Assembly: GCF_030264295.1 (NCBI RefSeq)
Contig: NZ_CP127173.1
Coordinates: 937,501-1,001,500, forward strand
Length of the DNA stretch: 64,000 bases
Source of the DNA: Amycolatopsis nalaikhensis
GTDB taxonomy: Bacteria > Actinomycetota > Actinomycetes > Mycobacteriales > Pseudonocardiaceae
Direction of reading: 5' to 3'
The notes under the pieces are model-generated. The model ran no database searches. It saw only the letters and a program-made list of their open reading frames with translations, and was not told the origin of the DNA. This document shows, piece by piece, positions 7,878-53,128 of this stretch. Position 1 is the first letter of the stretch. Each line of letters starts with the position of its first letter. The position numbers were made by a program, and so were the translations under genes.

Positions 7878-7880
7878 CGC

Positions 7881-8393
7881 TCAGGCCCCCACGATCCCTT
7901 TGAGGATCTCCACGACCAGCGGCGCCAACGCGGCGAGGCCGTAGCCCCACCCCGCGGACTTGAACGCGGTCTTGGCTTTCTCGACCTCGCCGGGGTCGCC
8001 GCCGCCCATCACGTAGCGGACGCCACCGATGCTCAGGAACACCGTCGCGAGGCCCGCGAGGATCCCCATGATCCAGTTGCGGACGTTGTTCAGCACGGTG
8101 GTCACCGAGTCCGCGAGCGCGAGCACGACGGTGTCGGCATGGGCGGACGAGGCGGTCAGCACGAGCGCCAGCGCGGCGAGCTCGACGACCAACAGCACGC
8201 GCGTGGACCGGCGCGCACGCCTCATCCGAGCGCGATCGTTCGGCCGAGTGATCGGATGAGTTATCGGCCGACGGTGGGTGGATTCCGACGAGGCGTTCGG
8301 CGTCGCGGCGTCGACCGCGGACGTTGGATAGCTGTCGGGTCGGGTGCATCGAGGCCGCACCGTGGCGGCCGGGAGACGATCGATCAGGCGCAT
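7881..8393 (-). CDS. TrbC/VirB2-like pilin-type small membrane protein
   Basis: Up to 170 residues. The core is a secretion signal (RRARRSTRVLLVVELAALAL, ending ASSAHA) followed by two hydrophobic helices, around NWIMGILAGLATVFLSIGGV and GWGYGLAALAPLVVEI, typical of VirB2/TrbC-type pilin subunits. The ATG at 8393 has a strong GGAGGT site and overlaps the upstream stop by 10 nt, so it was chosen. An internal ATG at 8225 starts directly at the signal peptide, giving 114 residues, but has no clear ribosome site. If the longer form is made, its first 56 residues are a basic, low-complexity extension. Confidence 0.78.
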   Translation of the reverse strand: MRLIDRLPAATVRPRCTRPDSYPTSAVDAATPNASSESTHRRPITHPITRPNDRARMRRARRSTRVLLVVELAALALVLTASSAHADTVVLALADSVTTVLNNVRNWIMGILAGLATVFLSIGGVRYVMGGGDPGEVEKAKTAFKSAGWGYGLAALAPLVVEILKGIVGA

Positions 8394-25729: not shown

Positions 25730-27782
25730 GTGCGGGTGAGGGCGGCAAGCAGCCCCGACAAAGCCGGGACGGGCCGGTACTGCCAGACGGTCCGGGTCCG
25801 GCGAGCGAGACGGAAAGGTATACGTGCAGGAACCAGCGAGTAACGCCTCTCAAGCGGCCCACCAGCTCAAATCTGGCGGATATGGGCTGGCTTGCGGTGC
25901 GCACCCCGGGTGCTGCCTGGGGAACTCCCGACCCGGTCTACCTATGATCGGAGGGAGGCTGCGGGGAAGGTCTACGGCGTACCCGCGGCGATGCCGCAGG
26001 GGCAGGAGCTGGGTGCCTATTCCGTCGATCGGTCAGGCAGTGAACGTGGGAACCACCGCGTGTCGCTCCCGGACCCGGCCGGCCAGGTCGGGACCGGGAT
26101 AGGCGCATCGTCCGCCGAAGGCGCGTGGTGGGGCGGAGGCTCCGTAGTAGTCCGAGGACGGGAAAGCCGTCTGCATGGCGAAGGGGGCCAGCAAGCCAGC
26201 AGTACGGATGCTGGAATGCCAGGAGGTCGTTGGTGAACACCGACGCGCTGGAGGCCGCGTTCTTCGACGCGGAACGCCGGGTACTGGAGATCCAGGCCAA
26301 GCTGCACCGTTGGGCGGTCGATGATCCTCATCGCCGGTTCGACGATCTGTACAACCTCGTGGCCGATCCCGCGTTCCTTCTGGTGGCGTGGTTTCGGGTG
26401 CGGAGCAACAAGGGCGCCAGGACCGCTGGTGTGGACGGGATGACCGCCCACGCTGTGCGATTGTGGCAGCAGGATTGCGTTCTGCTGGAACAGGTACGCG
26501 CCGAGTTGAAGGCGCGTGAGTTCCGTCCGATGCCCGTGCGGGCGGTGGATATCCCGAAGACGAAAGGGAAAGTTCGTCGGCTGGGGATTCCGACCGTGCG
26601 GGACAGGGTCGTGCAAGCGGTCCTGAAGCTGGTGCTGGAGCCGATCTTCGAGGCGGACTTTCGCTCGTGTTCCTACGGGTTCCGCCCGAATCGTCGTGCT
26701 CAGGACGCGGTGACCGAGACGTGGCATCTGGCGTCCAACTCGTATGAGTGGATTGTCGAGGGTGACATCGAGGCATGTTTCGATCGGATCGACCACACGG
26801 CCCTGATGGACCGGGTGCGTCACCGGATCGCGGACAAACGCGTCCTGTCCCTGATCAAGGCGTTCCTGAAAGCCGGGATCCTCGGCAAGGATGGCCAGAT
26901 CTGGAGCGGCGACACCGGCACTCCGCAGGGCGGCATCCTCTCGCCGCTGCTGGCCAATGTGGCGCTGTCGGTGCTGGACGAGCATTTCGACCAGTACACG
27001 ATCAGCACCGTGGAGCGAGCGAAACGGCGTCGGCACGGACTCGCCAATTACCGGCTTGTCCGGTACGCGGACGACTTCGTGATCATGGTGTCCGGCAACC
27101 GGGCACAGGCCGAAGCGCTCCTTCCTGAGGTGGCGGAGGTGCTCGCGCCGATGGGTCTACGGCTGTCGGCCGAGAAGACGATGATCACCCACATCGACGA
27201 GGGGCTGGACTTCCTCGGATGGCGCATCCGGCGTCACCGCAAGAGGGGGACAGTCGCGCGCTACGTCTACACCTATCCGTCGAAGAAAGCGCTCCGCGCG
27301 ATCATGACGAAGGTGAAGGTGGCGTGCTTGCAGAACGTGAACGAATCGCTGGCAGACCTGCTGCACCGGCTGAATCCGATGCTGCGGGGCTGGACGGCCT
27401 ACTTCCGGCCCGGAGTGTCCAATGTGACCTTCGAGTACCTGCGTTCCTATGTTTGGCGCCGGGTAATGCGATGGATCCGCAAGAAACACCGCCGGATTAA
27501 CTGGGAGAAGCTGCGACGCCGCTACTGCACCGTGTCCAACGACCGGTGGTGGCCCGCAGACGGCGACGTGATCCTGTTCAACCCAGCGTCGGTGAGCACT
27601 ACCCGTTACCGATACCGGGGAACGAAGATCCCGTCGCCGTGGCCCGCCGGGGCGTGAGATCGCATCGTCACGCGCGGTTTGTGGAGCGCCGGATGCGTTG
27701 AGAGGCGCATGTCCGGTGCGGGAGGCGGCTCGGGGAAACGGACTGGCCGTGAGGCCAGCACCGCGCCCCGAGTCGACCTCAC
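25730..27782 (+). mobile_element. Group II intron 1
   Basis: The proposed 5' end is GTGCGGGTGAG (consensus GUGYG) at 25730, giving about 500 nt of domains I-III before the maturase gene, a usual length. Domain V is clear at about 27684-27719: GAGCGCCGGATGCG, a short loop, and GCGCATGTCCGGTGC. Domain VI follows, with stem GCTCGGGG/CCCCGAG, and the intron ends near CGACCTCAC (AY end). The 5' boundary could instead be GTGCG at 25897. It sits inside the DUF2637 gene. Confidence 0.78.
26233..27657 (+). CDS. ltrA: Group II intron reverse transcriptase/maturase 1
   Basis: 474 residues from GTG 26233 with AGGAGGT 5 nt upstream. Reverse transcriptase blocks appear in order: NKGARTAGVDGMT (RT0/1), RRLGIPTVRDRVVQ (RT2), EGDIEACFDRIDH (RT3), GTPQGGILSPLLANV (RT4), RYADDFVIM catalytic block (RT5) and LDFLGWRI (RT7). 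A maturase X domain with LNPMLRGWTAYFR follows. There is no HNH endonuclease domain. It is encoded in intron domain IV and looks intact. Confidence 0.93.
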   Translation: MNTDALEAAFFDAERRVLEIQAKLHRWAVDDPHRRFDDLYNLVADPAFLLVAWFRVRSNKGARTAGVDGMTAHAVRLWQQDCVLLEQVRAELKAREFRPMPVRAVDIPKTKGKVRRLGIPTVRDRVVQAVLKLVLEPIFEADFRSCSYGFRPNRRAQDAVTETWHLASNSYEWIVEGDIEACFDRIDHTALMDRVRHRIADKRVLSLIKAFLKAGILGKDGQIWSGDTGTPQGGILSPLLANVALSVLDEHFDQYTISTVERAKRRRHGLANYRLVRYADDFVIMVSGNRAQAEALLPEVAEVLAPMGLRLSAEKTMITHIDEGLDFLGWRIRRHRKRGTVARYVYTYPSKKALRAIMTKVKVACLQNVNESLADLLHRLNPMLRGWTAYFRPGVSNVTFEYLRSYVWRRVMRWIRKKHRRINWEKLRRRYCTVSNDRWWPADGDVILFNPASVSTTRYRYRGTKIPSPWPAGA

Positions 27783-28327: not shown

Positions 28328-29357
28328 TGACCTAGGTGTGCTGCTGCTTCTGGTCGTTGACACCCTGGGATGGGGGTTGGGTCTTCTGTAGCAGCCTCTC
28401 ATACGGGGTCTGGCCGTCCAGGCCGCCGTGCGGGCGGTGGTAGTTGTAGTAGTCCTCCCATTCCTTGAGCTTGTCGTTGAAGGCGCCGATGTCGCCGAGG
28501 ACGACACCGTCGAGCAGCCGATAGAACTCCTCGGCGTCGATGCGGTGCGAACGCTCGACCTTCCCGTTGAGCCGCGGCGTGGCGGGCCTGATGTAGACGT
28601 GCCCGATGCCTTGGTCGAGCAGATGCCAGTGGAACGCGGACTGGAATTCCGCACCGTTGTCAGTCTGGATCTTCTCGACCTGGAACGGCAGCCGGGACAG
28701 CACGTAGTCCAAGAACTGGATCGCGGTCTTCTGATCGGAGCGGGGATAGATCCGCAGGATCCGCAGGCGAGTGCAGTCGTCGATGGCGGTGTACTGGTAG
28801 TACCGCTTCTTCCGGCCGGCGTCGGTGGTGATCGGTTCGACGAACTTGACGTCGATCTGCAACTGGTGGCCGGGGCGCTGCTTCTCATACCGCTTCCACC
28901 GCTGCTGGTGGCGTTTGTAGCGCTGAGACGCCGGCAGCCGGCTCATGCCCAGGCGTTTGAGGATGCGGTAGATCGTGGAGTGGCCGATCTCCTGGTCGTG
29001 ATAGCGGCGCAGGTACATCTCGATCTTCAGCGGGCCGAAGTGGTAGTGCTGGCGCAGGTGGATGATCTTCTCGACCACCTCGGGAGGAGTGATCGTCGGG
29101 CAGTGCAGCGGGGCGCTCGAGCGGTCCTTCAGCCCGTCGATGCCCTCGTCCTCGTAGCGGCGTTTCCACCGGTAGAACACGGTCCGGCTGATGCCGTAGT
29201 AGCGGCAGGTCGCCGCGACGTTGCCGCTGACTTCTTCGGCGTGACGAAGGACGGCCAGGCGCCGGTTTGCACGCCTGACCAGGTCCTTCTCACTCCATAC
29301 TCGCTCAGCCATGGGCCTCCCTTGATCAGGAGCCCAGACTGTCAACAACCTCTGTCA
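28328..29357 (-). mobile_element. IS481-type insertion sequence
   Basis: About 1.03 kb with one transposase gene. The right tip on the minus strand reads TGACAGAGGTTGTTGACAG; the left tip on the plus strand reads TGACCTAGGTG, with a further shared TTGACA-(2)-CTGGG. The ends are imperfect repeats, and no clear target duplication is seen, so the boundaries are approximate. Confidence 0.65.
28332..29312 (-). CDS. IS481 family transposase
   Basis: 326 residues. ATG 29312 follows AGGGAGG. An N-terminal HTH (NVAATCRYYGISRTVFYRWK) and an rve integrase core are present with acidic residues in IDVKF, DNGAEFQSAF and LNGKVERSHR, the DDE pattern. PYERL near the end is typical of IS481/IS3-like single-gene transposases. 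The frame is intact, so the element may be active. Its stop lies only 4 bases inside the left tip. Confidence 0.88.
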   Translation of the reverse strand: MAERVWSEKDLVRRANRRLAVLRHAEEVSGNVAATCRYYGISRTVFYRWKRRYEDEGIDGLKDRSSAPLHCPTITPPEVVEKIIHLRQHYHFGPLKIEMYLRRYHDQEIGHSTIYRILKRLGMSRLPASQRYKRHQQRWKRYEKQRPGHQLQIDVKFVEPITTDAGRKKRYYQYTAIDDCTRLRILRIYPRSDQKTAIQFLDYVLSRLPFQVEKIQTDNGAEFQSAFHWHLLDQGIGHVYIRPATPRLNGKVERSHRIDAEEFYRLLDGVVLGDIGAFNDKLKEWEDYYNYHRPHGGLDGQTPYERLLQKTQPPSQGVNDQKQQHT

Positions 29358-38819: not shown

Positions 38820-40601
38820 GTGAGCGATGTGGGGAAAGGCGCCCGTGAGGTGTCAGGTGGGGATCGGAGAGACGTTGCGTCACAGCCTGTGAAGTGTCGA
38901 AAATTGTTCGGATGACATCAAAACCGGGGCAATCGAACGGTTCCGGGATGAGTCTGGCGGGTGCCCGTTTATTGGCCAGGCGGTGTCCGGCATGAAGGCG
39001 GCGTGAATCCGGTCTGCTGCTTCGATGGGGAACGTGGGAAGGCGTGCCCGATACTGCTGCCGGCAGGTGGCGATAGGGAGAATTTCAACCGGCTGAAACC
39101 GGAAGGAACTGAGTACCGTTGCGAGGCGCGCTGGCGGACTGGCCCGTAGTAGCTGTGAGTCTCCTGCTTGACGCGGTGGGAGAGGAGCCAAGGGGCCGGG
39201 TCATCTGTGGCTTGTTCGCGTCGATCAACCGGGGTTCCCGGGAGGAGTCGCGGTGGGCGAGCTGAAATCGTTGGGCAAGGCGTTCGATATTTCGAAGTGG
39301 GAAGTGAAGGAAGCCTGGGAACGGGTCAGGGCCAATAAGGGTGCGCCGGGGGTGGACGGTTGCTCGATCGAGGACTTCGAGAAAGATCTACGGGGAAACC
39401 TGTACAAGATCTGGAACCGGATGTCCTCGGGCAGCTACTTCCCGCCGCCGGTGCTGGCGGTGGAGATTCCGAAGGCGCACGGCGCCGGTACGCGGGTGCT
39501 GGGTGTGCCGACTGTGGCTGATCGGGTGGCGCAGACGGTGGTAGCGCGGAGGCTGGAAAGGGCGGCTGAACCGGCCTTCCATCCGGACTCCTATGGTTAC
39601 CGCCCGCGTCGTTCCGCGTTGGACGCGGTCGCGGCGTGCCGGGAGCGCTGCTGGAAGAGCGACTGGGTGATCGATCTGGACATCGAGAAGTTCTTCGACA
39701 GTGTCCCGTGGGACCTGGTCGTCAAGGCGGTGGAGGCGCACACCGACCAGCGGTGGGTGGTGCTGTATGTCACGCGGTGGCTGCAGGCACCGATCCAGAC
39801 CTCGGACGGGGAAATCCGGTCTCGGGACCGGGGCACTCCGCAGGGGTCGGCGGTCTCTCCGGTGCTGGCGAATCTGTTCCTGCACTATGCGTTCGATGCG
39901 TGGATGGCGCGGACGTTCCCGGCCATCTCGTTCGAGCGTTACGTCGACGACGCGGTCGTGCACTGCACGAGCCGGGTTCAGGCCGAGCACGTGGCGCGGG
40001 CGATCGGTGTCCGGATGGAACAGGTCGGGTTGCGGTTGCATCCGGGCAAGACGCGGATCGTGTATTGCCAGGACGGTAAGCGGCGTGGTGTTCATGACCA
40101 CACCGGTTTCGCCTTCCTGGGGTTCACGTTCCGTCAGCGCTGCGCCAAGGATCGTCAGGGTAAGCGGTTCAGTGCTTTCCTGCCTGCGGTCAGCAAGGCG
40201 GCCCTGAAGAGGTTGAGTTCGCAGGTGCGGTCCTGGCGGCTGCATACGCGCACGACCCTGACTTTCGCTCAGCTCGCGCGGTGGGTCAATCCTGTCGTGC
40301 GGGGATGGATGCAGTATTACGGGGCTTACTACCGCTCCGCGCTGCATCGGCTCCTTACCCGCGTCAACACCTACTTGGTGCGGTGGATCCGCAAGAAATA
40401 CAGACGCTTGCGGGGCATGAAATCCGCGGTCCGGTGCTGGCGGGGGATCGTTGAACGACATCCCCGGATGTTTGCGCACTGGGCATGGGTCGCGGCTGTT
40501 CCGCCTGCTCAATGATCAAGGTGACAAGAGCCCGGTGACGAGAGATTGTCACGCCGGGATCCGTGGGAGCCTGGGGGTGAGATTCCCCCGGGCCACCCGA
40601 C
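38820..40601 (+). mobile_element. Group II intron 2
   Basis: Domain V is clear at 40528-40561: GAGCCCGGTGACG, a loop, and GTCACGCCGGGATC. Domain VI follows and the intron ends near CACCCGAC at about 40601. The 5' boundary is not resolved; GTGAGCGATG at 38820 and GTGCCCG at 38961 are candidates. It encodes a maturase in domain IV. It separates a LexA box from an ImuA-like gene. Confidence 0.72.
39253..40515 (+). CDS. ltrA: Group II intron reverse transcriptase/maturase 2
   Basis: 420 residues. GGGAGGAG precedes the start. RT blocks: NKGAPGVDGCS, TRVLGVPTVADRVAQTVVA, DLDIEKFFDSVP, GTPQGSAVSPVLAN, RYVDDAVVH (catalytic) and FAFLGFTF. A group II maturase domain with WVNPVVRGWMQYYG follows. No HNH domain. 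It is only distantly similar to maturase 1, so the two introns arrived independently. Confidence 0.93.
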   Translation: MGELKSLGKAFDISKWEVKEAWERVRANKGAPGVDGCSIEDFEKDLRGNLYKIWNRMSSGSYFPPPVLAVEIPKAHGAGTRVLGVPTVADRVAQTVVARRLERAAEPAFHPDSYGYRPRRSALDAVAACRERCWKSDWVIDLDIEKFFDSVPWDLVVKAVEAHTDQRWVVLYVTRWLQAPIQTSDGEIRSRDRGTPQGSAVSPVLANLFLHYAFDAWMARTFPAISFERYVDDAVVHCTSRVQAEHVARAIGVRMEQVGLRLHPGKTRIVYCQDGKRRGVHDHTGFAFLGFTFRQRCAKDRQGKRFSAFLPAVSKAALKRLSSQVRSWRLHTRTTLTFAQLARWVNPVVRGWMQYYGAYYRSALHRLLTRVNTYLVRWIRKKYRRLRGMKSAVRCWRGIVERHPRMFAHWAWVAAVPPAQ

Positions 40602-41383: not shown

Positions 41384-42003
41384 TCGACCACACCGGCGCG
41401 GCCGTCCGATCAGGTGCGCGTGGCGAGTTCGGCGGGCTGATTCCGATCCGGCCGGCGACCGGCAATGTCGCTGTCTGCTTGCGCGGCCATCGGCTCGACC
41501 TGGACCTCTACGACAAGTTGAAGCCCTACAGTCATCGCTACCGACGGCATGGCACGCTCTGCGAGGTCTGCCGTGCGCAGGAAGGCTGCGATCCCGGGGC
41601 CCGGCGCCTCGCCGAGTGGGCACACCTCGACGTCACGGTCCAGTACGAGCCCGACACAGCCCCTGGCGACGGGCTCGTACTGGTCGCTCACGCACCGGTT
41701 GCGGGGACGAGGGCAGGCCGGATCGAACTCCGTCTCGACGGCACCGAGGTTGGTACGGTGACCGCTAGCCCGTGCGTGAGCTGCCGTACGGCCACCCTCG
41801 ACTACGTCCACGTCGCCGCCGAGTACCGGCGCCTCGGCTTCGGTCGCACGCTCGTAGCGGCTGCGGTGGCCCGTGCCCCCTCGTACCGATGGACGGCGCC
41901 GCTACCGGACGGCCCGGTCGCGCAGTCGTTCCGTGCCCGGATCGCCATGCGCCGACCTGGTCAGCCATGTGCCCACGCCGGGAAGGCCGGTCTCACGCGG
42001 TGA
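41380..42003 (+). CDS. GNAT acetyltransferase with zinc-binding N-terminus
   Basis: 207 residues, start overlapping the ImuA-like stop (ATGA). The N-terminal half has a Cys/His cluster (CLRGH, then TLCEVC). GNAT motif A is DYVHVAAEYRRLGFGRTLVA with the RxxGxG turn. The acceptor is unknown. Its 3' end overlaps the convergent NUDIX gene by 11 nt. Coupling to an ImuA-like gene is unusual. Confidence 0.7.
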   Translation: MIDHTGAAVRSGARGEFGGLIPIRPATGNVAVCLRGHRLDLDLYDKLKPYSHRYRRHGTLCEVCRAQEGCDPGARRLAEWAHLDVTVQYEPDTAPGDGLVLVAHAPVAGTRAGRIELRLDGTEVGTVTASPCVSCRTATLDYVHVAAEYRRLGFGRTLVAAAVARAPSYRWTAPLPDGPVAQSFRARIAMRRPGQPCAHAGKAGLTR

Positions 42004-42487
42004 GCGTCAGGGGAGTGATGGGAAAGCGGTCGTCGAGGAGTGCTTGCAGGAGGTCTGGCAGCTCCGCGGGCAGGAGCTTGTCGCGGCAGGCCGAGACTTC
42101 GGCGGCGGGCCACCAGCGGCGCTCGATGAGTCCAGCTCGCTCGTTGGCGGTGTGCCGGAGCGCAGTGCGTGGTGCGGTGTGGTCGGTGCGGGCCAGGTAG
42201 ACGTGGTCGAGGCGGTGGTGGTTGCGGCCGCGGTAGGTGAAGCGGCTTTCGCGGGTCCAGAGCTTGCGACCGATCTCGTCCAGCACGAGCCCGGTCTCCT
42301 CGGCGATTTCGCGCCGTGCGGTGTCCTCGAGCTTCTCGCCGGGATCCTGGCCGCCGCCAGGGAGTTCCCACCAGTGGTGGCTGGGGTCGTCGGGGTCCCG
42401 GGCGTGGATGAGCAGGACTTCGTCAGCGTTGTTAAGGAGCAGGACGCGGGCGCCGACCCGCAGGGTCGGTTCGCTGGCGACGGTCAT
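41993..42487 (-). CDS. NUDIX hydrolase
   Basis: 164 residues. NUDIX box: GGGQDPGEKLEDTARREIAE continuing to ETGL, which fits GX5EX7REUXEEXGU. A nucleoside diphosphate-type substrate is likely but not defined. It is the last gene of the operon headed by the radical SAM gene, 54 bp after the EEP gene. Nucleotide clean-up or activation beside a dTMP-kinase-like protein would fit (inference). Confidence 0.88.
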   Translation of the reverse strand: MTVASEPTLRVGARVLLLNNADEVLLIHARDPDDPSHHWWELPGGGQDPGEKLEDTARREIAEETGLVLDEIGRKLWTRESRFTYRGRNHHRLDHVYLARTDHTAPRTALRHTANERAGLIERRWWPAAEVSACRDKLLPAELPDLLQALLDDRFPITPLTLTA

Positions 42488-42541
42488 CCGGTGGGTCCTC
42501 GTACTCGGCGGCTCATTGATGGCCGGGCACGATTACCTCGG

Positions 42542-43357
42542 TCAGAACAGCGTTGCCTCGCGGTCCGCGGCCGGGTCGGACGTTATCAGCGGTGCGTTCG
42601 CGGTGAGCGTCAGCGCGACGGCGAGTCCTGAATGGTCCGTCAGCGCAGGGTTTCCGGAACGGGTGTCGTGGACGTACGCGCAGCTGGTGAGGTGGGCGAG
42701 GAGCGAGGGGGACGCGTGAGCGTGGTCGTAGCGGTAGCCGAGCTCGGCGCGGCGAGCCCAGCTGTGCTCGACAGCTGTCGGATGCAGCGCGCGGAAGGCA
42801 TCGGTGAGGCCGTGTTGGTGGGTTAGCGCAGTGTAAAAAGCGGTCTCGAACGGCGCGAACTGCCCCGGGTGAGGCGGTACGTGCCCCGGTTCCAGAACGT
42901 TGAGATCACCCAGCAGGAGAACGGCGGCGTGGTCGCCGGTGGCTTCATAGGCCCGGTGGAAGGCCTCGAACCACTCGCGTTTGCGGGTCGTCTTCGCTTC
43001 TGTGGCGTCGCGGGAGGGGACGTAGGCGCCAAGGACACGCAGCGGGCCGTCGTCGGTGTCCAGCACAATGCCGGCCAGCCGGGCGGGCAGGTAGGTCATC
43101 GCCGGGCCGATGGGGTCCACGGTGCACTCGAATCGGGAGAGCAGCATGACGCCGCGTTCCTTGTCGGGGTGCTCGGGGAAGGTGACCGCCCAGCCGGCGT
43201 CGCCGTAGGACTCGGCGATCAGCTGCGTGCCGGGCCCGGAGCCGGTCTCTGTGAGCACGAAGACGTCCTCGTCGCGGCGGGCGAGCCAGTCGCGTTGGCG
43301 GCGGGCTCGTTCGATGGCGGGGTTGCCGACGTTGAGGGTGAGGACGGTCAGGGGCAT
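42542..43357 (-). CDS. Endonuclease/exonuclease/phosphatase (EEP) family protein
   Basis: 271 residues from ATG 43357. EEP motifs: LTVLTLNVGNP at the start, FVLTETG (catalytic Glu), LLLGDLNVLEPGH (DxN) and the terminal LTDHSGLAVAL (SDH type). No signal peptide, so it is cytoplasmic, like exonuclease III or small phosphodiesterases. Substrate not determined. Start overlaps the kinase stop by 10 nt, so translation is coupled. Confidence 0.83.
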   Translation of the reverse strand: MPLTVLTLNVGNPAIERARRQRDWLARRDEDVFVLTETGSGPGTQLIAESYGDAGWAVTFPEHPDKERGVMLLSRFECTVDPIGPAMTYLPARLAGIVLDTDDGPLRVLGAYVPSRDATEAKTTRKREWFEAFHRAYEATGDHAAVLLLGDLNVLEPGHVPPHPGQFAPFETAFYTALTHQHGLTDAFRALHPTAVEHSWARRAELGYRYDHAHASPSLLAHLTSCAYVHDTRSGNPALTDHSGLAVALTLTANAPLITSDPAADREATLF

Positions 43358-43980
43358 GCCGGGCTCTCCGTGAGGGTGCGGTGGATCAGGTTGATGATGG
43401 TGCCAGCCGTGGCGCGGGGATCGTCGGCGCACTCGATCATCTCGACTGGCCAGCCCTGGTCGCGCAGGAAAGTCATGGCCGCCAGGTAGCCGAGGGTTTC
43501 GCGGAAGCTGCTTCCGGGGGTGCGCTCGAAGCGGCTGTGTCCGCCGCGGGCGCGGAGCCGCTGTTCGACGTCCGCGGGTGGAGCTTTGAGCGCGCACACG
43601 AGGTCGGGGCGGTACACATCGTGGTTGAGCGCCCAGACGACATCGAGCGGGATGTCGTCGAGCCCCTGCAGGACCAGCGACGATGCCGCGTACCGGTCGC
43701 AGAGCACGATCTTGCCTTCGGCCAGGGCCGGGAGGATCTCGCTGGCCAGCTGGTGGTGACGGTCAGCCGCGCAGAGGCAGGCCAGAGCCATGTCGCAGTA
43801 GGTGTCGGTGCCATGCCGAGCCAGTTCGCCCAGCGGGGAGCGCGACGGCTGGACGGTGGCGTGCACGGGAACGCCGTCCGCTCCGAGGAGCTCGGCGACC
43901 AGCGCAGTGATCGTCGTCTTGCCGACGCCGCCGGGGCCTTCGAATGCCACCAGCTTGCCCGGCAGCCGCGGCGCGCTCAC
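43348..43980 (-). CDS. Thymidylate-kinase-like P-loop kinase
   Basis: 210 residues from a GTG overlapping the radical SAM stop by 4 nt. P-loop FEGPGGVGKTT (about 13-23), a DR(Y) motif VLCDRYAASSLVLQG and a C-terminal LID-like RARGGHSRFERTPG are dTMP kinase features. A chromosomal tmk would be expected elsewhere, so this copy is likely specialised. It may phosphorylate a nucleoside monophosphate made or used by the radical SAM and NUDIX proteins (inference). Confidence 0.83.
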   Translation of the reverse strand: MSAPRLPGKLVAFEGPGGVGKTTITALVAELLGADGVPVHATVQPSRSPLGELARHGTDTYCDMALACLCAADRHHQLASEILPALAEGKIVLCDRYAASSLVLQGLDDIPLDVVWALNHDVYRPDLVCALKAPPADVEQRLRARGGHSRFERTPGSSFRETLGYLAAMTFLRDQGWPVEMIECADDPRATAGTIINLIHRTLTESPACP

Positions 43981-45083
43981 GCGACGTCCAGGGGCAGCAG
44001 CCGGTGGGTCTCGGCGGTGACCGGGCACTGCTCGGCGTCGACGTCGCCGATGCGTCCGCCCGCGGCGACGACCGCGGCGGGGCAGCCTTTGCCACATCGT
44101 GGTTCGAGGCTGCACGACGTACAGGTCGGATTTGCGCCGACCTGGAACCGCTCGTGGAACCGGTACGCGTCCAGGCGGGCGGCGATGTCGCGATCGGTGA
44201 AGATGTTGCCGACGATGAAGTCGGTGTCGGGGTGGCGAGAGATCGGAGTGCGGGCGGAGAAGACGAGGTAGGGGCAGACGGTGACTTCGCCGGGGGTGAA
44301 GACGTAGATGATCGTTCCGGCTTCGCAGCCGGCGAGGGGTTTGCCGTCGGTGTTGGGGAAGCGGATGTGGGCGATGTCGAGGTCGGGGCCGTCGAACGGG
44401 GTAGTCAGCTCGAAGATCTCCTGCATGTGCATGGTGGTCTTCGCGAGCTTCCGCTGGGACTTCACGCCGCGGCCCATACTGCCCAGCGGGTTGAGCAGCA
44501 CGTAGCGCGCGCCGTTCTCTCGCGCGAACTCGCACAGCTGCACGTACTCCTCGTTGGCGGCCAGGGAGTTCGGCGTGCACAGCAGCCCTTGCAGGAGGCT
44601 GGCCGTGGCGAGCTTGCGGACGTTGGCCACGGTCACGTCGAAGGACGCGCGGTCGCCGCGGAACAGGCCGTGGGAGTCGGCGGCGAACCCGTCGAGCGAG
44701 ACGTTGACGTGCACCCCGGCCGTGGCGAGCTGCCGGATCAGCTTGTCATCGAGCTCGGTGGCGTTCGTGCAGACGCCGACGTCGATTCCGGCGTTGCGGA
44801 AGGCGTGCACGATGCCGAGGAAGTCCGGGTGAACGGTCGGCTCACCGCCGGTCAGCGTCACCCGGCGTACCCGGGCATCGGCCAGCCGAGGGACGACCTT
44901 CTTCACGACCTCGGTCAGCGGCATGTCCTTGCCGCGCTTGGTCGCGGAGACGAAGCAGTGCGCGCAGCGCAGGTTGCACCGCTCGGTGATCTGGACGAGT
45001 GCCTTGCGGTATGGGGTGTCGACGGTGGTGCGGAAGTAGCAGCTCGACGCCTGCTCGTCGACGGCGATCGGACGGACGGTCAT
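43977..45083 (-). CDS. Radical SAM/SPASM-domain protein
   Basis: 368 residues; GGAGGT lies 7 nt before ATG 45083. The [4Fe-4S]-SAM motif is CNLRCAHC at C36-x3-C40-x2-C43. VTLTGGEPTVHPDF is the GGE motif, and NVSLDGFAADSH follows. Near the C-terminus CTSCSLEPRCGKGC and CPVT form a SPASM-type cluster region. SPASM enzymes modify peptides or sugars. No precursor peptide is seen nearby, and the partners are nucleotide-type enzymes. It heads the four-gene operon opposite a LysR-like gene. Confidence 0.9.
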   Translation of the reverse strand: MTVRPIAVDEQASSCYFRTTVDTPYRKALVQITERCNLRCAHCFVSATKRGKDMPLTEVVKKVVPRLADARVRRVTLTGGEPTVHPDFLGIVHAFRNAGIDVGVCTNATELDDKLIRQLATAGVHVNVSLDGFAADSHGLFRGDRASFDVTVANVRKLATASLLQGLLCTPNSLAANEEYVQLCEFARENGARYVLLNPLGSMGRGVKSQRKLAKTTMHMQEIFELTTPFDGPDLDIAHIRFPNTDGKPLAGCEAGTIIYVFTPGEVTVCPYLVFSARTPISRHPDTDFIVGNIFTDRDIAARLDAYRFHERFQVGANPTCTSCSLEPRCGKGCPAAVVAAGGRIGDVDAEQCPVTAETHRLLPLDVA

Positions 45084-45258
45084 CGTTCGGACCTCCAAGT
45101 CGGGCGAGCGGTGGCGGTGGCACGAGTAGACCACTCGGTGCTCGCTGGAGCAATAAATTGACTAATAATGCTCGAAAGAAAACTTCAGTGCATTCTGGCT
45201 ACACTTGCTCGAACTAGAACTGGAACTATCCGACTGGAAAACAAGCGAGGAGACCCTG
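45084..45258. promoter_or_regulatory. Divergent promoter region of the radical SAM operon and LysR-like gene
   Basis: 175 bp, AT-rich from about 45150 to 45185 (CAATAAATTGACTAATAATG), unlike the flanks. LysR regulators usually act from such a divergent region; no single operator is clear. Confidence 0.5.
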
Positions 45259-46299
45259 GTGAGGGACTCGGAAGTCGCCGAGCTGCTCGGCTTCCCTGCA
45301 GAGCTGCTGGACACGAGCCTCGACCAACTGCGGACGCTGGCCGTCGTGCACGCCACCGGCAGTGCGCAGCGCGCGGCCCGGGTTCTGCAACGGTCGCAGT
45401 CCAGCGTGCAGAAGCAGCTCGACACGCTGAACGATGCGGCGATCCGGCTGATGGGCGAGGCGCTTGTCGCGAAGCAGGGGCGCGGGAAGGACTTCCTGTT
45501 CACCAGCTCCGGCGACGAGGTCGTCGCGCTGGCCACGAGCACGCTGCGCGCCTGGACCGAACGCGTCCATGGCGCCCGCCGGCGGGTCGGGTCCACCATC
45601 ACGGTGGGCACCACCGAGTTCACCGTCGAATTCCTCGGCGAGGTCTGGCCGCAGCTGCGCGACACCTTCGAACGCCGAGGCATCCAGCTCAAGATCGAGC
45701 ATGTCCGGACCCGCGACCTGAAGTCCAAGCTGGATGCCGAGCAGGTCGATCTCGTGTGCGGTTCGTTCGCTGCCGAACGCGGCCGCGGTCCGGACGTGCC
45801 GCACGATTTCCTCGAGTGGCACCGCGAACGCGTCGCCCTGCTGACCAACCTCAGCACCCGCGAGGTCCCCGACCGGCCGGTGACGCGCGACGCCCTCGCC
45901 GGCCTGCCGCTGCTCGCGCCGACCGCGGGTCTCCTGGCCGACTTCCTCACCCGCTGGTACGGCCCGGAGTACCGCGGCAAGCTTCATGTGGTCGCCGACA
46001 TCGACGCCCTCAACTACGGCCTCAACCTGCTCAGCAGCAAGCTGATGTTCGGCTGCCTGCTTACGACCGAGCGGGTCGCCGACGCAGCGATCGAAGGCCG
46101 GCTGCCCGGCGCGAACCTCCGCAAGATTCAGCTCGGCACAGGCTACGAACCTGAGCTCGAAATCGTCACGGGAATCTTCGCTCGCGCAGGCGAACGACAG
46201 CGATACGCCGCTGATCACCCACTCAACTTGCTCTGGGACGCCTTCGCGGCTGCCGCTCCGGCAGGCCGTGACGCTCAACATGAGGTCGCCGGATCATAG
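45259..46299 (+). CDS. LysR-like transcriptional regulator
   Basis: 346 residues from GTG 45259 with GAGGAG upstream; TTG 45205 is in frame. The N-terminal wHTH has LDQLRTLAVVHATGSAQRAA and VLQRSQSSVQKQLDTLN, a LysR pattern, followed by a two-lobed substrate-binding domain (GSTITVGTTEFTVEFLGEVW onward). It is likely the control gene of the divergent radical SAM operon; the inducer is unknown. The 3' end overlaps the convergent HTH gene by 25 nt. Confidence 0.8.
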   Translation: MRDSEVAELLGFPAELLDTSLDQLRTLAVVHATGSAQRAARVLQRSQSSVQKQLDTLNDAAIRLMGEALVAKQGRGKDFLFTSSGDEVVALATSTLRAWTERVHGARRRVGSTITVGTTEFTVEFLGEVWPQLRDTFERRGIQLKIEHVRTRDLKSKLDAEQVDLVCGSFAAERGRGPDVPHDFLEWHRERVALLTNLSTREVPDRPVTRDALAGLPLLAPTAGLLADFLTRWYGPEYRGKLHVVADIDALNYGLNLLSSKLMFGCLLTTERVADAAIEGRLPGANLRKIQLGTGYEPELEIVTGIFARAGERQRYAADHPLNLLWDAFAAAAPAGRDAQHEVAGS

Positions 46300-48299: not shown

Positions 48300-49559
48300 G
48301 TGACTGACGAGCAGACGGAGACGCGGCCGGCCGCCGATCATCTTGTGCGGGAGATCCGGCGCCTCCGATCGGCCGCGGGCCTGAGTCAGTCCGAGCTGGC
48401 CCGGCGGATCGGCTACACGCGCAACTACGTGTCACTGGCCGAGCGGGAAGGGCGGAACCTGCCGTCGCGTGAACTGGTCGATGCGCTCGACCGCGGTCTG
48501 CGCACGGGTGGCGATTTGCGGCGGCTTTGGGAGGCGGCGAAGCAGGAGCAGGCGGAGCTGCGGCGCGAGAACCGATCCCCGCGCACCACTCAGCTCAGGG
48601 ACGATGCGGTGCGTGTCGGCATGACGGCGCTAAGGCGGGCGCTGTTGGCTTGCGACGAGCCGGACGACGGTCCCGTTCGTCCGGCGCACGCCCTGCGAGC
48701 AGCTGTCTCCCAGGTGACAGAACAGCGTGTCCAGGCGCGTTATGCGCAACTGGTCGTCGATCTGCCGGATCTGCTGATGGAGCTGGGACGGGCGCGCGAT
48801 TTGGCGATCGATGAACGGGAACGCAGCAACGCAACGGAGCTGTTGGTCCTGGCTTACCGGGCAGCTGACGGCCTGGCTTTCAAGTACGGCTACACCGACC
48901 TCTCGAGCCAGATCATCACCGCCATGCGATTGGCTGCTTCCCAGGTCGATCGACCCTTCCTAGATGCGGCCGTCGCCTATGTGCGTACTGAAATGTTCTT
49001 CGCCGTGCGAGATCTGGAAACGGCGCACCGCTCGCTCGTCCGTGCCATCGATCGGATACCGGCTACCCGATCCACAGTAGACAGCGAAGCTGCCCGCGGA
49101 TCGCTGGCGATGCGGGCCGCCGTCGTTTCCGCACGTGCGGGTAAGGCGGAAGAAGCAGATGATCACCTCGCTGAGGCGTATCGAGCTGCCGAGCACACGC
49201 CCGAAGGTGTCTACCTCGGAACGGCCTTCGGTCCCGCTTCGGTCCGAATTCATGAAGTGGCTGTGGCGCAGGAGCTGGGGGACAGCCCGACCGCGGTCCA
49301 ACGCGGCACCGGTTGGCACCCGCCTCGCGAGCTTCCGGCCGAGCGCCGATCGCACTTCTACATCGACTTGGCTCCGGCGCAGCTCGAGGTGGGTCGGCCC
49401 GACGACGCTTTCGCATCGCTCCAGCTGGCCAAAAGCGTCGCGCCGCTCCACACCCGGGAGCATCCTCGGGTCAAGGCGGCACTGCGGTCGCTCCTGCGCG
49501 CGCAGCGGACGGTCAGCGACGAGCTGGCGACGTTCGCCGCATGGGCTGACGTGTCGTGA
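48300..49559 (+). CDS. XRE-family regulator with TPR-like C-terminus
   Basis: 419 residues from GTG 48300. HTH at about 20-60 (LRSAAGLSQSELARRIGYTR then NYVSLAEREG). The rest is alpha-helical with repeated Ala/Leu pairs, as in actinomycete XRE-TPR regulators of the quorum/sporulation type. An inverted repeat lies 24 bp upstream, supporting autoregulation. It converges on the HAD gene with no gap. Confidence 0.82.
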   Translation: MTDEQTETRPAADHLVREIRRLRSAAGLSQSELARRIGYTRNYVSLAEREGRNLPSRELVDALDRGLRTGGDLRRLWEAAKQEQAELRRENRSPRTTQLRDDAVRVGMTALRRALLACDEPDDGPVRPAHALRAAVSQVTEQRVQARYAQLVVDLPDLLMELGRARDLAIDERERSNATELLVLAYRAADGLAFKYGYTDLSSQIITAMRLAASQVDRPFLDAAVAYVRTEMFFAVRDLETAHRSLVRAIDRIPATRSTVDSEAARGSLAMRAAVVSARAGKAEEADDHLAEAYRAAEHTPEGVYLGTAFGPASVRIHEVAVAQELGDSPTAVQRGTGWHPPRELPAERRSHFYIDLAPAQLEVGRPDDAFASLQLAKSVAPLHTREHPRVKAALRSLLRAQRTVSDELATFAAWADVS

Positions 49560-50207
49560 TCAAGTTCTGGCGATCAGGTTGGGCAGTTCGTTCAGCGAGT
49601 TGATGACCCAGTCGGCGTTCGCCAGCACTGTCGGGTCGTCAGCCCACAAGTGTCCCCAGGGACCGCGACGGATCAATGCCGTCCAGAGCCCGGCGGCGTG
49701 ACCGGCGACGACGTCGTTGTCCCGGTGGTCCCCGACGTAGAGCAGCTCGTTGGGAGCGACGCCGGCCAACTCGATGACGTGCCGGAAGAAGGCGGGATCC
49801 GGCTTGGCGACGCCCCACTCAGCCGAGGTCGCGATGGCATCGACAGGGAGGTCGAGCTTGCGGAGCAGGCTCCCTGCCTTCGCGGTCTGGTTGCCGGCGA
49901 GCGCGATCCAGAGTCCGTTCCTCCGAAGCTGGGTTAGAGCGGGCCGGACGTCAGGGTAGAGGTCGCTCTCGTCGATGCGCTCGCCGTTGCCGGCGTCCTC
50001 GCGACGCTGCCGCTCGGCCGCGACGTCGAAGTCCGGCTTGAAGTACTGGAACGTCTCGGCGTTGTCCCGGCCGGACGCGGTTACCGCCCCGAGCACTGTC
50101 GAGAACGTGTGCCGGCCGACGCCGATCCAGTCCGCCCAGGCGTTCCACTCGCGCGTGTCGTCGAGCACGGTCTCCCCGATGTCGAGGACTACCGCCCTCA
50201 CCGGCAT
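49560..50207 (-). CDS. HAD family hydrolase
   Basis: 215 residues from ATG 50207; GGAAGGAAG upstream. Motif I VVLDIGETVLDD (second Asp replaced by Gly, as in dehalogenase-like members), motif II IALAGNQ, motif III lysine in GVAKPDPAFF, motif IV YVGDHRDNDV. A phosphatase of small substrates, possibly nucleotides given the neighbours. Possible LexA-type control from the site at 50368. Confidence 0.85.
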   Translation of the reverse strand: MPVRAVVLDIGETVLDDTREWNAWADWIGVGRHTFSTVLGAVTASGRDNAETFQYFKPDFDVAAERQRREDAGNGERIDESDLYPDVRPALTQLRRNGLWIALAGNQTAKAGSLLRKLDLPVDAIATSAEWGVAKPDPAFFRHVIELAGVAPNELLYVGDHRDNDVVAGHAAGLWTALIRRGPWGHLWADDPTVLANADWVINSLNELPNLIART

Positions 50208-51935: not shown

Positions 51936-52817
51936 TCAGGCTACGTGACGTGTGGTCGTTTCGTAGCTGGCGGGGCTGAGGTAGCCGAGGCTGGAGTGCA
52001 GGCGGCGGGTGTTGTACCAGCCTTCGATGTACTCGAAGATCGCCTTGTGCGCGGCGGTGCGGGTGGGCCAGGCCTGCCGGTCGAGTAATTCGGCCTTAAT
52101 GGTCGCGAAGAACGACTCGGCGACCGCGTTGTCCCAGCATTGTCCCTTACGTCCCACCGATAACCGCACGCCTTGCTCGTCAGCGAGCGCGTTGAACTGG
52201 GCGGAGGTGTACTGGCAGCCGCGGTCGGAGTGGAAGATTACTCCGGGCTCGGGGCGGCGCCGAGCGACAGCGTTGCGTAGGGCGTCGGCGACCAGATCGG
52301 TGCGCAGGTGATCCGCGGTGGCCCAGCCGACGACGCGGCGGGAGTCCAGGTCGATGACGGTGGCCAGATACAGCCAGCCTTCCCAGGTGTGGATGTAGGT
52401 GATATCCCCGCACCAGCGGGTGTTGATGTTCGTTGCGGTGCAGGAGAAATCCCGCTTGAGCAGGTCGGTGGGCATGGTCGCTGCCGGGTCGGGAGTGGTT
52501 GTGGTCCGCCACCGTTTCGGGGTCCGTCCGGCCAGGCCCGCGGTGTGCAGGAGCCGGGCGATCCGCTTGCGGGAATGCCGCCGGCCGCGGGCGCGGAGTT
52601 CGGCGTGGACCCGGGGTGTTCCGTAGGTGCCGTTCGACTCGTTGTGGATCGCGACGATCTCGGCTGTCAGCTCCGCGTCGTCGCGTTCGTGTTGGGAGGG
52701 GGTGGCGGCGCGGTGGGTGTAGTAGGCGGCTCGGGAGACCTTGAGCAGTTCGCAGGCACGTTTGACGTTGCCGCTACCGCTGGCGTTCTCCGCCTCGATG
52801 AACGGGTACACGTTCAC
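51936..52817 (-). CDS. IS3-family transposase OrfB
   Basis: 293 residues from a GTG overlapping the orfA stop (GTGA). HTH_21-like N-terminus, then rve core with the DDE triad in CGDITYIHTW, IFHSDRGCQYTS and NAVAESFFATIKAE, and the RLHSSLGYLSPASYE tail of IS3 elements. A fused OrfAB product by frameshifting is also possible. Confidence 0.92.
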   Translation of the reverse strand: MNVYPFIEAENASGSGNVKRACELLKVSRAAYYTHRAATPSQHERDDAELTAEIVAIHNESNGTYGTPRVHAELRARGRRHSRKRIARLLHTAGLAGRTPKRWRTTTTPDPAATMPTDLLKRDFSCTATNINTRWCGDITYIHTWEGWLYLATVIDLDSRRVVGWATADHLRTDLVADALRNAVARRRPEPGVIFHSDRGCQYTSAQFNALADEQGVRLSVGRKGQCWDNAVAESFFATIKAELLDRQAWPTRTAAHKAIFEYIEGWYNTRRLHSSLGYLSPASYETTTRHVA

Positions 52818-53128
52818 CGGGTCTCCTTCGCGAAGAAAGCCGTCGCTCGTTTGAGGATCTCCACGTCCTCGGACAGGCGGCGGTTCTCCCGCCGCAGCCG
52901 GGCCAGCTCTTCCCGCTCGTCGCTGGTCAACCCGCCGTCGGTGCGGGTCCCGGCGTCGCGTTCGGCCTGCTTGACCCACTCGCGCACGCCGGTCTCGGTC
53001 AAGTCGAAGTCCTTCGCGACCTGACCGATCGAGCGGTCGCCCCGCTGGCACAGCTCGACGATCTCGGCCTTGAACTCAGGCGTGAACGAACGACGAGGCC
53101 GAGGCTTCTTCCTGCCCATGGTCTCCAT
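52814..53128 (-). CDS. IS3-family transposase OrfA
   Basis: 104 residues: HTH_Tnp_1 domain (RRSFTPEFKAEIVELCQRGD, IGQVAKDFDLTETGVREWVK) and a leucine-zipper coiled coil (ELARLRRENRRLSEDVEILK). Standard DNA-binding half of the transposase. Confidence 0.92.
   Translation of the reverse strand: METMGRKKPRPRRSFTPEFKAEIVELCQRGDRSIGQVAKDFDLTETGVREWVKQAERDAGTRTDGGLTSDEREELARLRRENRRLSEDVEILKRATAFFAKETR

What the first reader, a model, noticed from the sequence alone, without database searches (positions are those of the whole stretch)
41993..46299. Radical SAM/SPASM, dTMP-kinase-like, EEP and NUDIX operon facing a LysR-type regulator
Three genes overlap in sequence and the fourth follows by 54 bp. 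Together they pair a radical chemistry enzyme with a nucleotide kinase, a phosphodiesterase fold and a NUDIX hydrolase. That combination could make, activate and dispose of a modified nucleotide, as antiviral chain terminators or a nucleoside natural product would require. I know no described system with exactly this set; it is the best candidate for a new system here.
Basis: partly seen in the sequence, partly recalled or inferred. Interest (0 to 1): 0.8.

Follow-up and report, generated by a model that had tools for sequence, protein, structure and literature searches.

The report
Mobile nucleotide-analogue cassette, self-protected (predicted)
A compact, mobile set of four bacterial genes, here facing its own likely regulator, looks built to make an abnormal DNA building block and to protect its owner from it; this matters because such a building block could be a natural antiviral or antibiotic of unknown structure.

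Summary
Confirmed: radical SAM/SPASM (rSAM), thymidylate-kinase-like (TMK), ExoIII-like EEP and NUDIX genes lie tightly together facing a LysR-like gene. It is a conserved unit: of 61 relatives outside the window, 55 carry rSAM, TMK and EEP, and 51 also NUDIX (23) or a MazG-like gene (28). The fourth gene is thus exchanged between NTP-hydrolase families; two further copies have a CYTH gene nearby. Spread is sporadic (12 of 199 other same-family genomes) and reaches Bacteroidota and Bacillota. The TMKs keep catalytic residues, but all 56 compared lack two aromatic pocket residues. The EEP has an ExoIII/APE1 fold and catalytic residues. The Aureispira copy adds a deoxynucleoside kinase. No precursor peptide was found. 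The closest described logic is the 4'-thiothymidine cluster thmABC (PMC12691670). Best reading: it makes a nucleotide analogue, phosphorylates it, and protects its host by destroying the triphosphate and trimming DNA ends. Whether this serves phage defence or antibiosis is open; type I-C cas genes flank 2 of 12 family cassettes. Substrate and product are unknown.

The parts
43977..45083 (-). radical SAM/SPASM enzyme (CX3CX2C at Cys 36, 40, 43; family motif C15-Y-F-R; SPASM motif 253-353)
   Evidence: Pfam Radical_SAM 1.6e-23; CX3CX2C in 52, SPASM 7-Cys motif in 53 and CYFR in 53 of 55 members of 310 aa or more, window included; model pLDDT 82.8
43348..43980 (-). thymidylate-kinase-like nucleotide kinase with altered nucleotide pocket
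   Evidence: Thymidylate_kin 1.7e-28; TIGR00041 dTMP kinase 103 bits, over its cut-off of 83; aromatic pocket residues absent in 56 of 56 cassette TMKs
42542..43357 (-). EEP protein of ExoIII/APE1 type
   Evidence: Exo_endo_phos 3.6e-9; catalytic residues aligned with E. coli XthA; model pLDDT 93.2, ExoIII-family folds at Z up to 28.4
41993..42487 (-). NUDIX hydrolase (complete Nudix box)
   Evidence: PF00293 3.5e-22; Nudix box in 24 of 24 including the window
45205..46299 (+). divergent LysR-like regulator (a start at 45259 is also possible)
   Evidence: HTH_1 3.6e-7; found in 21 of 23 NUDIX-type relatives and in none of the 28 MazG-type ones
45084..45204 (.). shared promoter/operator gap; relatives carry palindromic TGTTCG..CGAACA-like sites, the window an imperfect CGAGCA version seen by eye
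   Evidence: alignment of 20 gaps; pattern drawn from them: 18 matches in 4467 bp of gap against 10 in 404659 bp elsewhere, in 12 of 22 gaps, none in the window's own gap

Best explanation
A mobile, self-protected nucleotide-analogue cassette. Steps: (1) the rSAM/SPASM enzyme modifies a nucleoside or nucleotide, probably of pyrimidine/thymidine type (inferred); (2) the TMK-like kinase, whose pocket is changed, phosphorylates the modified monophosphate towards the triphosphate (kinase family and catalytic residues shown by sequence; substrate inferred); (3) the analogue triphosphate blocks or damages DNA synthesis of a phage or of a competitor (inferred); (4) the NUDIX enzyme, or in other lineages a MazG-like or CYTH enzyme, destroys the analogue triphosphate in the owner (families shown; substrate inferred); (5) the ExoIII/APE1-like enzyme clears incorporated analogue from 3' DNA ends (fold and catalytic residues shown by sequence and model; substrate inferred); (6) in the NUDIX type the divergent LysR-like protein controls the unit through sites in the shared gap (conserved sites shown in relatives; binding inferred). 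I lean slightly to intracellular anti-phage use over a released antibiotic. The confidence given is for a nucleotide-analogue maker with built-in self-protection, either use.
For: Conserved unit: 55 of 61 relatives have rSAM+TMK+EEP and 51 of 61 also NUDIX or MazG-like (coordinates); rSAM and TMK overlap by 4 bp in 46 of the 56 loci with all three, window included. NUDIX, MazG-like and CYTH are separate hydrolase families. The Lachnospiraceae copy, without a TMK, follows a protein with weak HD-domain matches (Pfam E 0.017; PDB 2o6i E 3e-5). Aureispira has a deoxynucleoside kinase (PF01712, 1.6e-28) between TMK and EEP. TMK pocket: 0 of 56 aromatic at position 70 and 56 of 56 Leu at 104, against F/Y and Y in 4 of 4 reference TMKs, while R74, R96, Q105 and R150 are 56 of 56. 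EEP: the 50 listed fold matches, all ExoIII/APE1-family or Crc entries, have Z 26.6-28.4 at 2.1-2.5 A over 231-242 residues; catalytic residues invariant in 23 of 23 rows. Best PDB match of the rSAM profile is BlsE, a nucleoside-antibiotic enzyme (E 2.6e-17). thmABC (rSAM, kinase, NTPase) makes 4'-thiothymidine and thmC alone gives resistance (PMC12691670). Ape1 can remove L-nucleoside analogues from DNA (PMC7259961, one passage). Defence-type neighbours at four of 12 family loci (picked by eye). cas1: 2 of 7 strong loci in the 12 genomes lie within 12 kb of the cassette, 0.023 expected (post hoc).
Against: No activity is shown for any member. The peptide maturase SkfB matches the rSAM profile almost as well as BlsE (7.1e-17), and SuiB and SkfB score slightly higher than BlsE in fold (Z 24.6, 24.4, 23.4), so a peptide or other substrate is not excluded. 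ThmA could not be compared. The window genome has no dNK and no cas1, and ten window neighbours gave only a weak capH match (4.1e-7) and a DNA methylase (1.2e-9). The EEP fold list includes Crc, an RNA-binding ExoIII-fold protein recalled as having no nuclease activity; the EEP could also be a biosynthetic phosphatase. Ape1 has little activity on D-configuration analogues (PMC7259961). Lachnospiraceae and Tepidibacter copies lack a TMK. MazG-like proteins stay below Pfam's cut-off, and two of four tested gave no match. No NUDIX, MazG-like or CYTH gene was seen at L084.
Confidence: 0.58

Rival explanations
1. A released nucleoside antibiotic cluster: rSAM and TMK-like kinase are biosynthetic, the EEP dephosphorylates the product for release, and NUDIX/MazG/CYTH gives self-resistance, as in thmABC.
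For: thmABC makes 4'-thiothymidine with rSAM, nucleoside kinase and a self-resistance NTPase, without a transporter in the minimal cluster (PMC12691670); named hosts are mostly Streptomyces and Pseudonocardiaceae, groups rich in antibiotics (general knowledge); BlsE is the best PDB match of the profile.
Against: EEP is closest to the DNA-acting ExoIII/APE1 family; defence-type genes adjoin several cassettes.
Confidence: 0.3
2. A RiPP or peptide-cofactor cluster whose SPASM enzyme modifies a peptide, the other genes being auxiliary.
For: Seven-Cys SPASM motif in 53 of 55; SuiB and SkfB are top fold matches and SkfB the second protein in the profile search; mycofactocin maturase is the best NCBIfam score, far below its cut-off (106 of 265 bits).
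Against: In the LysR/rSAM gap no frame is open in all 20 loci and the conserved DNA blocks keep their spacing in 19 of 20 to within one base; in the 2-kb flanks of 28 MazG-type loci no small ORF recurs in more than 5 loci. No extra N-terminal domain precedes the rSAM core in the model and Pfam reported no PqqD/RRE domain in the cluster proteins. Peptide chemistry does not explain the kinase, ExoIII-like and NTPase genes.
Confidence: 0.07
3. A nucleotide-pool repair or stress operon: the genes salvage and clean damaged nucleotides and DNA ends (NUDIX/MazG house-cleaning, ExoIII repair, TMK supply), and the rSAM repairs a lesion.
For: Each partner family has house-cleaning or repair members (general knowledge of the families; fold).
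Against: Sporadic, accessory distribution (12 of 199 others in the family; 2 of 395 others in the phylum sample), unusual for repair; 7 of 8 relatives' genomes have a further TMK-family match at E 5e-17 or better outside the cassette (only weak ones in Aureispira); the kinase pocket is remodelled.
Confidence: 0.1

Closest known systems
4'-thiothymidine cluster thmABC of Photorhabdus (PMC12691670; abstract, section 7 and passages seen)
   Same: Very small cluster found in scattered species: radical SAM enzyme, nucleoside kinase, nucleoside triphosphatase; the triphosphatase alone gives self-resistance.
   Different: thmB is an AbmG-like nucleoside kinase (the window has a TMK type; Aureispira has TMK and dNK); no ExoIII-like or LysR gene is named in the minimal cluster; homology of the rSAM to ThmA could not be tested.
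Prokaryotic viperins (pVip) with nucleotide kinases (recalled; PADLOC models pVip and VakA)
   Same: Radical SAM gene next to a nucleotide kinase; viperins align to the rSAM core (Z about 19-21).
   Different: This rSAM has a SPASM motif, and its pVip score is no better than that of ordinary SPASM-type radical SAM enzymes.
Blasticidin S enzyme BlsE, cytosylglucuronate decarboxylase (PDB 7vob/7voc)
   Same: Best PDB sequence match of the rSAM profile (E 2.6e-17); 282 residues at 3.1 A, Z 23.4.
   Different: 20-22% identity; SkfB is nearly as close.
Exonuclease III / APE1 / Neisseria NExo
   Same: Fold and catalytic residues of the EEP.
   Different: Loop insertions of E. coli ExoIII are missing in the alignment; 22% identity to XthA.
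Albucidin cluster (PMC7074753; abstract, passages and gene table seen)
   Same: Radical SAM enzymes acting on a nucleoside.
   Different: albA is biotin-synthase-like and albB OxsB-like; the thymidylate kinase near alb is not needed for albucidin.

Membership tests
prokaryotic viperin (pVip) | PADLOC pVip match better than that of unrelated radical SAM enzymes | tested here: not met
   window 6.4e-20; two mycofactocin maturases of the same genome 1.4e-17 and 9.6e-17; a NirJ1-like rSAM of the Tepidibacter genome 5.1e-27
prokaryotic viperin (pVip) | no SPASM domain (recalled feature of viperins) | tested here: not met
   7-Cys SPASM motif in 53 of 55 rSAMs of 310 aa or more, window included
prokaryotic viperin (pVip) | nucleotide kinase neighbour (a subset of pVips) | tested here: met
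   TMK-like gene with rSAM and EEP in 55 of 61 relatives
thmABC 4'-thiothymidine cluster | rSAM orthologous to ThmA | not testable with these tools
   ThmA sequence not in reach: no Enterobacterales genome handle could be obtained
thmABC 4'-thiothymidine cluster | AbmG/dNK-type nucleoside kinase in the cluster | tested here: not met
   window genome: 0 matches to PF01712; a dNK was seen in the Aureispira relative L078
thmABC 4'-thiothymidine cluster | nucleoside triphosphatase gene in the cluster | tested here: inconclusive
   NUDIX in the window with full Nudix box; its substrate and its kinship to thmC are unknown
SPASM RiPP maturase system | conserved precursor peptide nearby | tested here: not met
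   2-kb flanks and LysR/rSAM gap of 24 NUDIX-type and 2-kb flanks of 28 MazG-type loci; ORFs inside genes or further away were not tested
SPASM RiPP maturase system | RRE/PqqD recognition domain | tested here: inconclusive
   none reported by Pfam for cluster proteins; the model shows no extra N-terminal domain
thymidylate kinase | P-loop Lys, DR motif, Arg74, LID arginine | tested here: met
   R74, R96 and R150 56 of 56; K21 55 of 56 (one gap, broken copy); D95 55 of 56
thymidylate kinase | aromatic residues of the thymidine pocket (role recalled) | tested here: not met
   position 70 is C/I/V in 56 of 56 and position 104 Leu in 56 of 56; F/Y and Y in 4 of 4 references
ExoIII/APE1 family | fold and catalytic residues | tested here: met
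   Z 27.5 to E. coli ExoIII over 242 residues at 2.4 A; N9, E37, Y112, D151, N153, D211, D241, H242 aligned with XthA
ExoIII/APE1 family | 3' DNA end-processing activity | not testable with these tools
   needs an enzyme assay
anti-phage defence system | defence-island context above background | tested here: inconclusive
   cas1: 2 of 7 strong loci within 12 kb of 12 cassettes, 0.023 expected (with weaker cas1 matches 2 of 11, 0.037 expected), chosen post hoc; JetA: 1 of 20 matches near a cassette (about 0.07 expected, my arithmetic); window surroundings weak

The most novel reading that the evidence does not exclude
A bacterial immune system that makes its own DNA-chain poison and carries both halves of the antidote: a triphosphate-destroying enzyme (NUDIX, MazG-like or CYTH, exchanged between lineages) and a dedicated ExoIII-like repair nuclease that removes the poison from the host's own DNA ends, so that phage replication is hit while the host survives.
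Probability: 0.27. Interest if true: 0.9.

Novelty: new variant of a known kind. Interest (0 to 1): 0.7.

Why it matters
Natural nucleotide analogues are few and useful as drug leads. This is a compact, definable radical SAM family (signature CYFR plus SPASM) with a conserved kinase, an ExoIII-like enzyme and an exchangeable NTP-hydrolase, ready for expression in laboratory hosts. If the ExoIII-like gene is an antidote acting on incorporated analogue, it would be a self-immunity layer that I did not see described for such systems in the papers seen here.

Tried and rejected
Rejected: viperin membership (pVip scores are generic). Rejected: the recurring 'peptides' in the LysR/rSAM gap; they fall in several frames, no frame stays open in all 20 loci (at most 13), and the conserved DNA blocks keep their spacing (86 or 85 bases in 19 of 20), so they are DNA sites. 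Rejected: albucidin-type kinship. Led nowhere: phages collection (15 records, all under 60% identity); plasmids beyond two relatives (in the rows shown the others were at 32% or less); dNK search in plasmids. Not interpreted, no control run: weak PADLOC matches of the TMK to PDC-M51B (2.1e-9) and VakA (7.7e-6) and of the NUDIX to PDC-S07 (6.1e-9). Not settled: fold matches of the rSAM do not separate peptide from nucleotide enzymes. No publication with this gene set appeared in ten literature searches, which cover open-licence PMC papers only. Seen of papers: PMC12691670 abstract, section 7, passages; PMC7074753 abstract, passages, gene table; PMC7259961 one passage; PMC6273010 and PMC10250203 passages; the rest only as listings. 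The rSAM tree has long branches for the non-actinobacterial rows, so their placement is unsure; the label 'CYTHq' on one row was a placeholder of mine, and no CYTH gene was seen at that locus (L109). Rows dropped: of 24 PF02223 matches fetched, those that were cassette copies, other P-loop kinases by eye, or gave no row (for example L115, L119, L125) were not used as reference TMKs; three were used, with E. coli tmk.
Full report
WHAT IS THERE. The window holds, on the minus strand, rSAM 43977-45083, a TMK-like kinase 43348-43980, an EEP protein 42542-43357 and a NUDIX hydrolase 41993-42487; the first three overlap by 4 and 10 bp and NUDIX follows after 54 bp. A LysR-like gene faces them from 45205 or 45259 to 46299. 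The genome is 10.67 Mb; the nearest named relative of the rSAM is Amycolatopsis sp. MtRt-6 at 97%.

IS IT A UNIT? In a sample of 200 genomes of the same family 13 have the rSAM at E below 1e-60, the window's own included, and none of the 12 others is of the same genus. In those 12 the order rSAM-TMK-EEP-NUDIX is kept (the NUDIX of L027 and L030 by tblastn), and 11 have the divergent LysR (not L031). A scan of GTDB genomes gave 55 loci and IMG/VR gave 4; plasmid records gave 2. Several of the 55 are the same places as. Of these 61 relatives, 55 have rSAM, TMK and EEP; of these 55, 23 have NUDIX and 28 a MazG-like gene, and four have neither (L069 ends at a contig end; L078 and L091 have a CYTH gene nearby; at L084 none was seen). 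The LysR is in 21, all of NUDIX type. The remaining six of the 61: two are cut by contig ends (L058, L089), two lack a TMK (Lachnospiraceae L080, Tepidibacter L082), two are remnants (L083, L086). Clustering genes of 59 neighbourhoods, the most widespread family outside the cassette is a DUF5753-type regulator in 16 loci at varying places; up to 11 loci, mostly Streptomyces, share upstream regulatory-type genes.

SPREAD. The cassette is rare and sporadic: 3 of 396 genomes of the phylum sample including the window's own, 8 of 297 in the family of Streptomyces griseofuscus including that seed and some truncated copies, and only the seed in 398 genomes of the Lachnospiraceae copy's phylum and in 296 of Aureispira's. 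In the rSAM tree species of Kutzneria, Saccharothrix and Actinokineospora are split among branches, as expected of horizontal transfer, though some of the separating branches are not strongly supported.

THE FOURTH GENE IS EXCHANGED. NUDIX-type proteins keep the Nudix box in 24 of 24. The 15 MazG-like proteins aligned keep invariant E38, E39, E42, E69 and D72, the EExxE...ExxD motif of MazG-type pyrophosphohydrolases (motif recalled; residues); Pfam scores are weak (4.5e-4 and 0.026, two of four tested gave no match) and one solved nucleotide pyrophosphohydrolase matches (5ie9, E 0.0028). A CYTH-domain gene lies directly before the rSAM in Aureispira (8.1e-15) and about 0.9 kb beyond the EEP, on the other strand, in viral contig L091 (4.1e-17). 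The Lachnospiraceae copy follows a protein with weak HD-domain matches. The common theme is hydrolysis of nucleoside triphosphates (inference).

THE KINASE. All 56 cassette TMKs compared keep R74, R96, Q105 and R150, and 55 of 56 keep K21 and D95, so they should be active; but position 70 is Cys, Ile or Val in 56 of 56 and position 104 is Leu in 56 of 56, where E. coli TMK and three TMKs from relatives' genomes have Phe/Tyr and Tyr. From recalled TMK structures these aromatic residues line the thymidine pocket. In 7 of 8 relatives' genomes there is a further TMK-family match outside the cassette at E 5e-17 or better; in Aureispira only weak ones. I infer a modified nucleotide as substrate.

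THE EEP. It aligns with E. coli XthA with the catalytic residues kept, and the model (pLDDT 93.2) matches ExoIII from Sulfolobus (Z 28.4, 2.2 A, 234 residues), Neisseria NExo (28.3) and E. coli ExoIII (27.5); Crc, an ExoIII-fold protein recalled as having no nuclease activity, is also listed (Z 27.2). APE1, of the same family, can take L-configuration nucleoside analogues off DNA but has little activity on D-analogues (PMC7259961, one passage).

THE RADICAL SAM ENZYME. CX3CX2C in 52, the seven-Cys SPASM motif in 53 and an N-terminal CYFR motif in 53 of 55 members of 310 aa or more. Its profile finds BlsE first in the PDB and the peptide maturase SkfB almost level (2.6e-17 and 7.1e-17); the model (pLDDT 82.8) is slightly nearer SuiB and SkfB than BlsE, with viperins behind. 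It is thus not assigned to a chemistry. It is not a pVip: the PADLOC scores are in the range of mycofactocin maturases and below that of a NirJ1-like enzyme.

REGULATION. The gap between LysR and rSAM in 20 loci has conserved blocks with TGTTCG/CGAACA half-sites (CGAGCA in the window and two Amycolatopsis relatives) at nearly fixed spacing. A pattern drawn from them occurs 18 times in 4,467 bp of gap and 10 times in 404,659 bp elsewhere; it hits 12 of 22 gaps and not the window's own, where only an imperfect version is seen by eye. No reading frame stays open through the gap in all loci, which argues against a precursor peptide there.

NEIGHBOURHOOD. Among the 12 family loci, type I-C cas genes (L021, L029) and OLD/GajA-like and JetA genes (L031) are clear neighbours, and a SMODS-type cyclase (L022) a weaker one (PADLOC 3.2e-12; Pfam SMODS below its cut-off). 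The neighbours tested were picked by eye, and those of five of the 12 loci (L025, L026, L028, L030, L032) were not scanned. Seven strong cas1 loci exist in the 12 genomes (about 98.7 Mb); two lie within 12 kb of the cassette, against 0.023 expected, Poisson 2.7e-4; counting weaker cas1 matches too, 2 of 11 against 0.037, 6.5e-4. Both are post hoc tests. JetA is near one cassette out of 20 matches (about 0.07 expected, my arithmetic). In the window itself ten neighbours gave a weak capH match and a DNA methylase; conjugation-type genes, a serine recombinase, two group II intron proteins and two insertion elements are present.

COMPARISON. The thmABC cluster of Photorhabdus (PMC12691670; abstract, section 7, passages) makes 4'-thiothymidine with an rSAM, an AbmG-like nucleoside kinase and a nucleoside triphosphatase; the last alone gives resistance. 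The logic is the same as proposed here; the Aureispira relative even has a dNK. Orthology with ThmA could not be tested. The ExoIII-like gene, the remodelled TMK, the exchangeable NTP-hydrolase and the LysR-like gene are the differences.

VERDICT. A real, mobile, conserved cassette; most likely a nucleotide-analogue maker with self-protection (0.58). Use in phage defence or antibiosis is open. Shown: gene set, conservation, exchange of the fourth gene, catalytic residues, folds by prediction. Inferred: every substrate and product.

Noticed in passing
window 2681-8198, 15171-17084, 26233-27657, 28332-29312, 39253-40515, 51936-53128: Conjugation-type genes (TraG, PrgI and weak TrbL matches), a large serine recombinase, two group II intron reverse transcriptases and two insertion elements: the cassette lies in a mobile-element-rich region.
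   Followed up: partly
window 48300-49559 and 49560-50207: An XRE regulator and a HAD-like protein also lie near the cassette in L033 and L040, and the HAD-like protein in L075; possibly a separate module or an accessory phosphatase.
   Followed up: no
L083, L086, L076, L081: Truncated or deleted copies: in L083 the rSAM start is followed directly by the MazG-like gene; L086 (Amycolatopsis vastitatis) shows fragments of rSAM and TMK only.
   Followed up: no
L084:7544-8404 and 6146-7540; L109:8893-10359: A Solirubrobacteraceae locus has a second EEP copy on the other strand beside an XRE-IrrE (Peptidase_M78) protein; a similar-looking protein stands beside the cassette of L109 (by eye).
   Followed up: partly
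L078:6762-8003: Near the Aureispira cassette a 413-aa protein has a weak nucleoside deoxyribosyltransferase-like C-terminus (E 0.0086); a TraD-like coupling-protein gene (by eye) lies close by.
   Followed up: no
L109:6077-6895: In this actinobacterial genome the EEP is on the opposite strand to rSAM and TMK, so the operon order is not absolute.
   Followed up: no
L091:11650-12456: A 268-aa protein without a Pfam match at E 0.05 lies between EEP and CYTH in this viral contig.
   Followed up: no
L027:6974-9469: An NB-ARC/TPR protein (831 aa) lies near the cassette of this family member.
   Followed up: no
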